A stretch of DNA of 48,103 bases from the IMG/VR virus record IMGVR_UViG_3300017788_000038, positions 1-48,103 of that record. One strand, 5' to 3'. This DNA is from a virus. This document shows, piece by piece, positions 7,977 to 9,626 of the stretch; positions within the stretch are counted from its first letter, which is position 1; the number at the start of each line of letters is the position of its first letter. The notes beneath the pieces were generated by a model that saw only the letters and a list, made by a program, of their open reading frames with translations, was not told where the DNA came from and did not search any database. The position numbers were made by a program, and so were the translations under genes.

Positions 7977-9626
7977 ATGCCAGCAATGGATAGAGTCGGT
8001 CAGCAAAGAACACAAAGAGTTGGAAATGATTCCGTCTATGGTTCAGGTTTAGATGGAACTGGATACGTTAACTCTGCAGTAACTTTAACTAGCGACATGT
8101 ATTATGACAATTTGGAAGTTACTTCTAATGGAATTATTTATACTAATGGGTTTAAAGTTTTTGTCCAAAACACTTTAACTCTTAATGGATTTATTGGGAT
8201 AGGTTCTGTTACTTCTGGTGTAGTTGACGAATCTGGATCAAACATCTCTGATGGTTCAATTGCAGGACAAGCCACATCTACTATTTCTTATAGACTTGGA
8301 GGACAAGGTGGTGGTGGCTCTAATCCAAACGTATCAGCCCTGCCAAGCTATCTGTACAAGAATTTAAATAACCTTTTAGGTGGAAGTTATATTGATCCAG
8401 CAAATACTGGTGGAGTAAAAATTACTGGTGGATCTGTTGGTACCACTGGAACCACTGGTGCAACAACACCTGCTCCAGTTACTTGGCCAAATAAAGCAGG
8501 TAAAGCAGGAGCTCTTGGCGGATATGGACCAAGTAACCACACTGTTAATGCTCCAGGCGGAAGAGGTAATCCAGCAGCAGATGGTTCCGCTAACTCTGGT
8601 CCAGCTCCAGGTGGAGCAGGAGGTTCTGGTGGAGTAGGAGGTGGCGTAGTTGCTATCTTTGCAAAAACAATAATTGGATCTGGAAAAGTATTTTCATTAG
8701 GTAGATCTGGAGCAGCTGGATCGGCTGGAACCACAATACCAGCTGGAGCAGCTGGAGCAAACGGCGCTAAAGCCCCAGATAGAACAGATCATCATCACGT
8801 TGCTCCAAGTTCACACCATCACGTTGCCCCAACTCACACTCATCACCATGTTGCTCCTCATACAACTCATGCTCCAAGAACACATGATCATCATAATCAT
8901 ACAACAAATCATTCTGATCGCCATGGGCATAAATCTGGACCCCATACAGACCATAAGGGTCATGTCCATGAGGAGCCTCATTGGCATCATGGCGGTCACT
9001 ACCACCATCCGCACAACGATGGACCTCATGGTGGCGTTCATCACTGGGATGGTCACTACTGGCATGCATGGAGACCTCACTATCAGTACTTGGGGCACTG
9101 GACTCATTATCCTCCGCATGGGCATCAAAAGCCTAATGGTCATCACAACTGGTATACACCAGACGGTAATGCTCACCATCATGAAAGGTTTTATCATGGA
9201 TCATTTGGCGGACACGATGGTCACGTTCATGCGCATTTTGGCGAACCACCACATACCCATACTCACGTAAATGGGATAACTCACTCAAGTGCAAGGTACC
9301 ACCACCATGCTCACTCACATCCTAACCCAGATGTTGCAGGACATCATGCCAATCCGCCAGCTTTAGGTCATACCGCAAATCCAGATGCCTCTGCTCATTA
9401 TGTAGGAGGAGCAGGAGGGGTTAATGATGGATCTCATGGAGTAGGAGCACCTGCGATTACTGGGGTTACAGGAAAAAGAGGTGGAGCTGGAGGAGGAGGA
9501 GCAATTGTTGTTGTATGTGATACAATATCAAACACAATTTCTTTTGACACCAGAGCAGGTTTAACAGTAGATTCAGACAATTTTTCTGCCTCTTCTGGTT
9601 CATCATATATACTATATAATATCTAA
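7977..9626 (+). CDS. Gly-rich and His-rich fibre-like virion protein
   Basis: The start is taken as ATG 7977, one base after the previous stop, giving 549 residues. An in-frame ATG at 7926 lies inside the preceding gene and is unlikely. Residues 1-90 match the paralogue upstream. About residues 100-270 are Gly/Ala/Pro-rich with GGAGGSGGVGGGVVAIFA. Residues 272-474 form a striking His-rich insert with more than 60 His by my count, many as HxH or HHH, with Trp and Tyr in the middle. After the insert the Gly-rich block resumes (GGAGGGGAIVVVCDT) and the protein ends in a short beta segment. The insert looks like a metal-binding tip or loop inside a Gly-rich fibre. Metal binding is inference; T4 long tail fibre tips bind iron through HxH motifs. 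The next gene follows after an AAGGAG site. Confidence 0.7.
   Translation: MPAMDRVGQQRTQRVGNDSVYGSGLDGTGYVNSAVTLTSDMYYDNLEVTSNGIIYTNGFKVFVQNTLTLNGFIGIGSVTSGVVDESGSNISDGSIAGQATSTISYRLGGQGGGGSNPNVSALPSYLYKNLNNLLGGSYIDPANTGGVKITGGSVGTTGTTGATTPAPVTWPNKAGKAGALGGYGPSNHTVNAPGGRGNPAADGSANSGPAPGGAGGSGGVGGGVVAIFAKTIIGSGKVFSLGRSGAAGSAGTTIPAGAAGANGAKAPDRTDHHHVAPSSHHHVAPTHTHHHVAPHTTHAPRTHDHHNHTTNHSDRHGHKSGPHTDHKGHVHEEPHWHHGGHYHHPHNDGPHGGVHHWDGHYWHAWRPHYQYLGHWTHYPPHGHQKPNGHHNWYTPDGNAHHHERFYHGSFGGHDGHVHAHFGEPPHTHTHVNGITHSSARYHHHAHSHPNPDVAGHHANPPALGHTANPDASAHYVGGAGGVNDGSHGVGAPAITGVTGKRGGAGGGGAIVVVCDTISNTISFDTRAGLTVDSDNFSASSGSSYILYNI
8790..9398 (+). repeat. low-complexity histidine-rich coding segment
   Basis: Codons CAT and CAC recur throughout, coding HHH, HxH, HTH and GHxH patterns (residues 272-474 of the fibre-like protein). 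The spacing is irregular, so this is compositional rather than a strict tandem repeat. Three HHHVAP-like units near the start (from 8790) are the clearest repeated unit. Reverse-strand open frames here are shadows of it. Confidence 0.85.

What the first reader, a model, noticed from the sequence alone, without database searches (positions are those of the whole stretch)
8790..9398. A 203-residue histidine-rich insert in a glycine-rich fibre-like protein
More than 60 His by my count, many as HxH or HHH, inside a Gly-rich virion protein. In phage fibres, HxH sets bind iron or zinc and stiffen the tip. This block is far longer than those. It could store metal, form a metal-stiffened needle, or bind a host surface in a pH- or metal-dependent way. 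The centre also has Trp, Tyr and Pro clusters.
Basis: partly seen in the sequence, partly recalled or inferred. Interest (0 to 1): 0.75.

Follow-up and report, generated by a model that had tools for sequence, protein, structure and literature searches.

The report
Histidine-rich tip protein with linked halogenase
A family of lake viruses, probably of actinobacteria, carries an adhesin-like protein with a block that is almost one-third histidine, always beside genes for a halogenating and an oxidising enzyme, which suggests a metal-binding, possibly chemically modified attachment tip that I did not find described.

Summary
In detail: 63 His in 203 residues, within a 549-codon gene (7977-9626). 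It is not a private insert. A scan with the His-free N-terminal part alone gave 51 distinct complete relatives, and all 51 carry a His-rich block at the same place, in several types that do not align with each other. His-richness is what is kept. In the window's type, His and Trp columns are best conserved and short loops between them vary; in one near-identical pair 11 of 12 changes in the block are non-synonymous, against 1 of 9 outside. The scaffold is predicted with confidence; the block has no predicted fold. The gene lies in a conserved cassette with a His-free paralogue, a 2OG-Fe(II) oxygenase and a flavin-dependent halogenase. Starting from the halogenase, all 68 loci with enough sequence carry the scaffold gene with a His-enriched block (many are related to each other); one genome has the cassette twice. 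WhiB genes point to actinobacterial hosts. Best reading: a tail-tip adhesin with a weakly ordered, metal-binding His domain that displays variable loops. Metal binding, virion location and enzyme substrate are inferred. Two members have no Trp, so Trp of this protein is not the general halogenase target.

The parts
6905..7258 (+). Small cassette gene, 117 aa (phrog_20100, unknown function)
   Evidence: recurs next to the paralogue in relatives
7264..7975 (+). Paralogue of the scaffold without His block; needs a +1 frameshift at CAG C GGA GG (7573-7581)
7977..9626 (+). His-rich adhesin-like protein, 549 aa
8058..8240 (+). N-terminal beta-rich scaffold (residues 28-88), beta-helix-like
   Evidence: pLDDT mostly 77-86; weak matches to beta-helices
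8424..8789 (+). Gly-rich scaffold (residues 150-271)
   Evidence: pLDDT mostly 67-91
8781..9401 (+). His-rich block, 207 aa, 63 His
8979..9071 (+). Most conserved core HWHHGGHYHHPHNDGPHGGVHHWDGHYWHAW
8946..8978 (+). Variable loop 1 (TDHKGHVHEEP)
   Evidence: alignment A2
9072..9098 (+). Variable loop 2 (after HAW)
9144..9164 (+). Variable loop 3 (after KPNGHH)
9267..9296 (+). Variable loop 4 (after HTHTH)
9390..9572 (+). C-terminal Gly-rich and beta scaffold (residues 472-532)
   Evidence: pLDDT mostly 73-92
9652..9879 (+). Small cassette gene, 75 aa
   Evidence: recurs in relatives
9879..10277 (+). Small cassette gene, 132 aa
   Evidence: recurs in relatives
10274..10855 (+). 2OG-Fe(II) oxygenase (PF13640)
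10871..12385 (+). Flavin-dependent tryptophan halogenase-like enzyme (PF04820) with the aligned catalytic Lys and Glu
12382..13170 (+). Cassette gene of unknown function (phrog_7084)

Best explanation
The protein is most likely a virion adhesin at or near the tail tip of a contractile-tailed phage of freshwater actinobacteria. A beta-helix and Gly-rich strands form a conserved stalk, in the manner of T-even gp38 adhesins. From it projects a long His-rich domain whose His and Trp framework is kept while short loops between them change. The His residues most likely bind transition metal ions, which gather an otherwise weakly ordered chain into a compact or cross-linked tip that presents the variable loops to the host surface. 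The neighbouring 2OG oxygenase and halogenase are probably maturation enzymes for products of the cassette. Shown: sequence, conservation, His-richness across the family, loop variability, cassette linkage. Inferred: virion location, receptor binding, metal binding, enzyme substrate. My estimates: tip adhesin 0.7; metal binding by the block 0.65; both together 0.55.
For: All 51 distinct complete relatives found with the His-free scaffold query have a His-rich block. His columns are better conserved than others (0.89 against 0.77, p 0.001) and 5 of 5 Trp columns are invariant. Changes cluster in loops: L008/L009 11 of 12 non-synonymous in the block against 1 of 9 elsewhere, p 0.0004; block divergence exceeds scaffold divergence in L013/L019 and window/L005. 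Cys pairs next to His occur in several block types. The gene lies between head and tail sheath genes. gp38 adhesins have a beta-helix, a polyglycine domain and hypervariable receptor loops (PMC12892980). HxH sites bind iron in other phage fibres (PMC6116203). In isolated Nanopelagicales phages a hypervariable island spans the tail fibre and collagen-like genes (PMC10202952).
Against: No experiment. No sequence or structure match to gp38 or any solved fibre. The block has no predicted fold. Other pairs do not reach significance on the non-synonymous test (p 0.06 and 0.14). His-rich chains can also bind polyanions or respond to pH without metal.
Confidence: 0.55

Rival explanations
1. The same adhesin, but the His block works without metal: as a pH-titrated chain, or through hydrogen bonds and stacking, that binds cell-wall polymers such as teichoic acids or capsular sugars of the host.
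For: Block is rich in His, Asn, Pro, Tyr and Trp and poor in aliphatic residues; probable Gram-positive hosts (WhiB).
Against: Neutral freshwater leaves most His uncharged; Cys pairs beside His in several types fit metal better.
Confidence: 0.22
2. A regular trimeric needle with HxH iron sites stacked along its axis, as in T4 gp37.
For: 20 HxH in the block; known HxH iron sites in fibres.
Against: No enrichment of lag 2 over shuffles; variable loops break up the pattern; AlphaFold2 shows no long strands in the block, although trimers and metal were not tested.
Confidence: 0.08
3. A disordered, low-complexity linker or repeat expansion with little function.
For: Low pLDDT; length varies; types do not align.
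Against: pN/pS mostly well below 1; His and Trp columns conserved; His-richness kept in every inspected family member.
Confidence: 0.06
4. The oxygenase and halogenase have nothing to do with the tip; they act on small molecules or host metabolism and are kept nearby by inherited gene order.
For: Halogenases of P-SSM2, S-SSM7 and S-PM2 are not next to such proteins. L137 and L139 lack Trp in the His protein but still have the halogenase.
Against: All 68 informative halogenase loci carry the scaffold gene; the whole set is duplicated in one genome and stays together through an inversion; in three cyanophages the halogenase also lies beside Gly-rich tail-tip genes.
Confidence: 0.4

Closest known systems
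T-even gp38 adhesins (phages S16, PP01)
   Same: Beta-helix-like part, Gly-rich strands, conserved framework with hypervariable loops (PMC12892980)
   Different: No detectable homology to solved structures; the loop region is about 200 residues and one-third His; linked enzymes
HxH iron-binding fibres (T4 gp37, R-pyocin fibres, Alteromonas phage R22Y)
   Same: Many HxH in a tail-type protein
   Different: R-pyocin fibres have one HxH site per shaft, T4 gp37 seven irons, R22Y six HxH; here 50-65 His without regular spacing and no predicted needle
Nereis jaw proteins Nvjp-1 and Nai11527
   Same: His- and Gly-rich; in jaws they bind zinc and occur in a halogenated, cross-linked material (PMC13120676); here a halogenase is linked
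   Different: No homology claimed; metal and halogen not measured here; analogy only
Cyanophage halogenase VirX1 (PDB 6qgm) and other phage tryptophan halogenases
   Same: Phage flavin-dependent halogenase of the same superfamily
   Different: I know of no native substrate for VirX1; no His-rich partner beside the phage halogenases examined

Membership tests
T-even gp38 polyglycine adhesin | Beta-helix plus polyglycine II sandwich | tested here: inconclusive
   Scaffold is beta-rich and Gly-rich with good pLDDT, but no significant match to a solved structure
T-even gp38 polyglycine adhesin | Conserved Gly framework with hypervariable loops | tested here: met
T-even gp38 polyglycine adhesin | Sits on a gp37 trimer and binds a receptor | not testable with these tools
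   Needs virion structure and adsorption assays
HxH iron-binding fibre | Regularly placed HxH in a trimeric beta shaft | tested here: inconclusive
   HxH present but lag 2 not enriched; trimer and metal could not be modelled
HxH iron-binding fibre | Bound iron or zinc | not testable with these tools
   Needs metal analysis
Diversity-generating retroelement target | Reverse transcriptase and template repeat | tested here: not met
   No RVT_1 in 17 records; no second copy of the block in 16 records; records are fragments
Flavin-dependent tryptophan halogenase (gene 10871-12385) | PF04820 over cut-off | tested here: met
   340 bits against cut-off 21
Flavin-dependent tryptophan halogenase (gene 10871-12385) | Catalytic Lys and Glu (PyrH K75 and E354) and the WxWxIP motif | tested here: met
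   K82 and E337 align with them; WMWEIP at 263
Nvjp-1-type metal-hardened protein (works-like only) | Bound zinc and halogenated residues | not testable with these tools
   Needs elemental analysis and mass spectrometry

The most novel reading that the evidence does not exclude
A phage-encoded, enzymatically modified adhesive tip: the halogenase and the 2OG oxygenase halogenate and hydroxylate residues (Tyr, His, Pro, or Trp where present) of the His-rich protein or its paralogue, and metal ions cross-link it, so that a virus uses the same material principle as a worm jaw. This would also give phage tryptophan halogenases a protein substrate.
Probability: 0.2. Interest if true: 0.93.

Novelty: new variant of a known kind. 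Interest (0 to 1): 0.74.

Why it matters
Tryptophan halogenases are common in aquatic phages and I know of no native substrate for them; one review repeats a suggestion of antibiotic protection (PMC2984593). A strictly linked partner gene gives a testable context. A tail protein with 50-65 His per chain would be an unusually dense candidate metal site for a virus and bears on the idea that phages carry metals in water. Phages of the abundant freshwater actinobacteria have only recently been isolated (PMC10202952), and their host contact is not understood.

Tried and rejected
Retroelement-driven loop change: no reverse transcriptase and no template repeat. Known family: no Pfam or PHROG match for the His protein. 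Fold identification: no significant PDB match; a second look gave only middling Z 4-5.5, among them beta-helices; the best viral-library match is a collagen-like Pandoravirus protein with high rmsd, of little meaning. Whole-protein tblastn against annotated phages found nothing, possibly because low-complexity masking was on. Trp in the His block as the general halogenase target: rejected, since many short-block members have none in the block, and L137 and L139 none in the whole protein while a halogenase is present. Regular His periodicity: not seen; only depletion at 3-4 and mild enrichment at 5-8. Cellular homologues: one weak hit on a contig of an Actinomycetota MAG.

Full report
What is there. 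The frame 7977-9626 encodes 549 residues. The stretch 8790-9398 codes for 63 His in 203 residues. The ATG at 7977 follows directly on the stop of the preceding gene and corresponds to the start in relatives; an ATG at 7926 exists but would overlap that gene.

The family. A scan of IMG/VR with the protein gave 26 loci and with the His block 35. A scan with the N-terminal 113 residues alone, which hold no His-block sequence, gave 276 relatives, of which the best 80 were kept. Among the new loci, 51 distinct complete proteins could be read, and every one has a His-rich block in the same place, with 15-36 His in its densest 80 residues. The entries that seemed to lack one were cut by the contig end or were the paralogue described below. 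Blocks fall into several types: the window's type with HHPHNDGPHGG; a HHPHSNDGHGG type; an AYHTHYPFHTVW type; VNGGHHH or NPHHHT repeats; and short types of about 70 residues, often with CC pairs. These types do not align with each other, while the scaffold does, at about 45-55% identity. So composition is kept more than sequence.

Conservation and variation. Within the window's type (13 members, 63-91% identical to the window) His columns average 0.89 identity and all others 0.77 (p 0.001), and the five Trp columns are invariant. The core HWHHGGHYHHPHNDGPHGGVHHWDGHYWHAW is nearly unchanged. Between these motifs lie short stretches that differ in length and sequence. L008 and L009 differ by 12 changes in the block, 11 of them non-synonymous, and by 9 elsewhere, one of them non-synonymous (Fisher p 0.0004). 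L013/L019 have synonymous divergence 0.23 in the block and 0.04 in the N-terminal scaffold, and window/L005 0.80 and 0.20, as expected if blocks are exchanged between phages. Two other pairs were not significant on the non-synonymous test. A retroelement was looked for and not found.

Structure. AlphaFold2 with 19 sequences gives a confident scaffold (residues about 30-88, 150-271 and 472-532) and pLDDT 23-41 through the block. The block alone with 27 sequences gives pLDDT 41 and pTM 0.20. No solved structure matches significantly; weak matches include beta-helices. The layout resembles gp38 adhesins of T-even phages, a beta-helix with a polyglycine sandwich and protruding receptor loops (PMC12892980), but membership was not shown.

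Neighbourhood. The window has a major head protein gene at 3048-4103 and two tail sheath-like genes, so it is a contractile-tailed phage, and the cassette lies inside the structural region. Directly upstream is a paralogue of the scaffold without His. Downstream are two small genes, a 2OG-Fe(II) oxygenase, a flavin-dependent halogenase and a gene of unknown function. PF04820 was found in 33 of 34 records with the scaffold gene, on the same strand, 2.8-4.4 kb downstream of its N-terminal part; in the exception the scaffold gene lies at the contig end. The oxygenase shows the same pattern.

The linkage from the other side. A scan with the halogenase alone gave 80 loci. Of 68 with at least 4.5 kb upstream, 59 have a His- and Gly-rich gene upstream at a threshold of 12 His per 80; five more have the scaffold gene with 11 per 80 (L216, L218, L226-L228); four near-identical loci (L210-L213) have it inverted on the other side, with 13 per 80. 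For L211-L213 this rests on length, position and composition shared with L210, and for L218, L227 and L228 on the same likeness to L216 and L226. These loci are related and partly redundant, so they are not 68 independent events. Two observations argue for a functional unit rather than inherited gene order. One genome (G034) has the entire set twice, with halogenases 61% and 47% identical to the window's. In L210 the set stays together although the scaffold gene is inverted. In annotated phages the halogenase lies beside Gly-rich tail-tip genes in syn9, S-SZBM1 and S-SRM01 and near collagen-like genes in the actinobacterial phage DSL-LC01, but not in P-SSM2, S-SSM7 or S-PM2, and in none of those examined is the neighbour His-rich in this way.

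The enzymes. The halogenase keeps the Lys and Glu that align with PyrH K75 and E354, and the WxWxIP motif. That these are the catalytic residues is established knowledge. Its substrate is open. Trp of the His protein is not required, since L137 and L139 have none. Tyr occurs in all members, in or near the block.

Host. WhiB, which I know only from actinobacteria and their phages, is present in 6 of 18 and 7 of 10 virus records with the cassette. The window has none in its 48 kb, so its host is inferred.

A second finding in the cassette. The paralogue upstream (7264-7975) is open only if the ribosome skips one base in CAG C GGA GG. Five distinct relatives share this site although synonymous sites have diverged by up to 0.69, and the downstream frame is under the same purifying selection as the upstream one (pN/pS 0.10-0.25). 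A further lineage (L074) has a shift elsewhere in the gene, at TTA C GGA GG; 30 other distinct copies are in frame. The zero-frame codon at the site is CGG, 0.1 per thousand in the window's genes. A review describes +1 frameshifting at extremely rare CGG(A) or UGG(A) codons, with the extra base directly before a GGA codon, in glass sponge mitochondria (PMC5009743). This looks like programmed +1 frameshifting, not shown by experiment.

Conclusion. The feature is real and constitutive for a family of freshwater phages. The likely role is a tail-tip adhesin with a metal-binding His domain that shows variable loops. The tight linkage to a halogenase and an oxygenase is the most surprising part; it suggests, but does not show, chemical modification of the tip.

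Noticed in passing
window 7264-7975, shift site 7573-7581 (CAG C GGA GG): The upstream paralogue needs a +1 frameshift at CAG|C|GGA GG; the site is conserved in five distinct relatives with the downstream frame under purifying selection, and L074 has an independent shift at TTA|C|GGA GG. CGG occurs 0.1 per thousand codons. Looks like programmed +1 frameshifting at a rare codon.
   Followed up: yes
window 16185-17843 and 18664-19950: Two genes with tail sheath matches in one phage.
   Followed up: no
L044 474-1349: A second, unrelated His-rich tail-type protein with HTHTLGSHTHT repeats in the same locus.
   Followed up: no
L148 (syn9), L152 (S-SRM01), L153 (S-SZBM1): Cyanophage tryptophan halogenases lie next to Gly-rich adhesin-like tail genes, in S-SRM01 directly before a gene annotated as gp37-gp38 adhesin tip.
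   Followed up: partly
L055, L056, L058-L060, L137, L139: Scaffold proteins with long collagen-like GSPGATGSPG or GASGASGAR repeats of varying number before the His block.
   Followed up: no
L232 (G034:39500-59400): The whole cassette occurs twice in one phage; the second His protein is 713 aa with a much weaker His block.
   Followed up: partly
L062 (contig RHAS01000028.1): The only hit in the genome collection: a contig of an Actinomycetota MAG with a His-block relative, possibly a phage contig.
   Followed up: no
window 35715-47516: A single open frame of 3933 codons at the end of the structural region, not identified.
   Followed up: no
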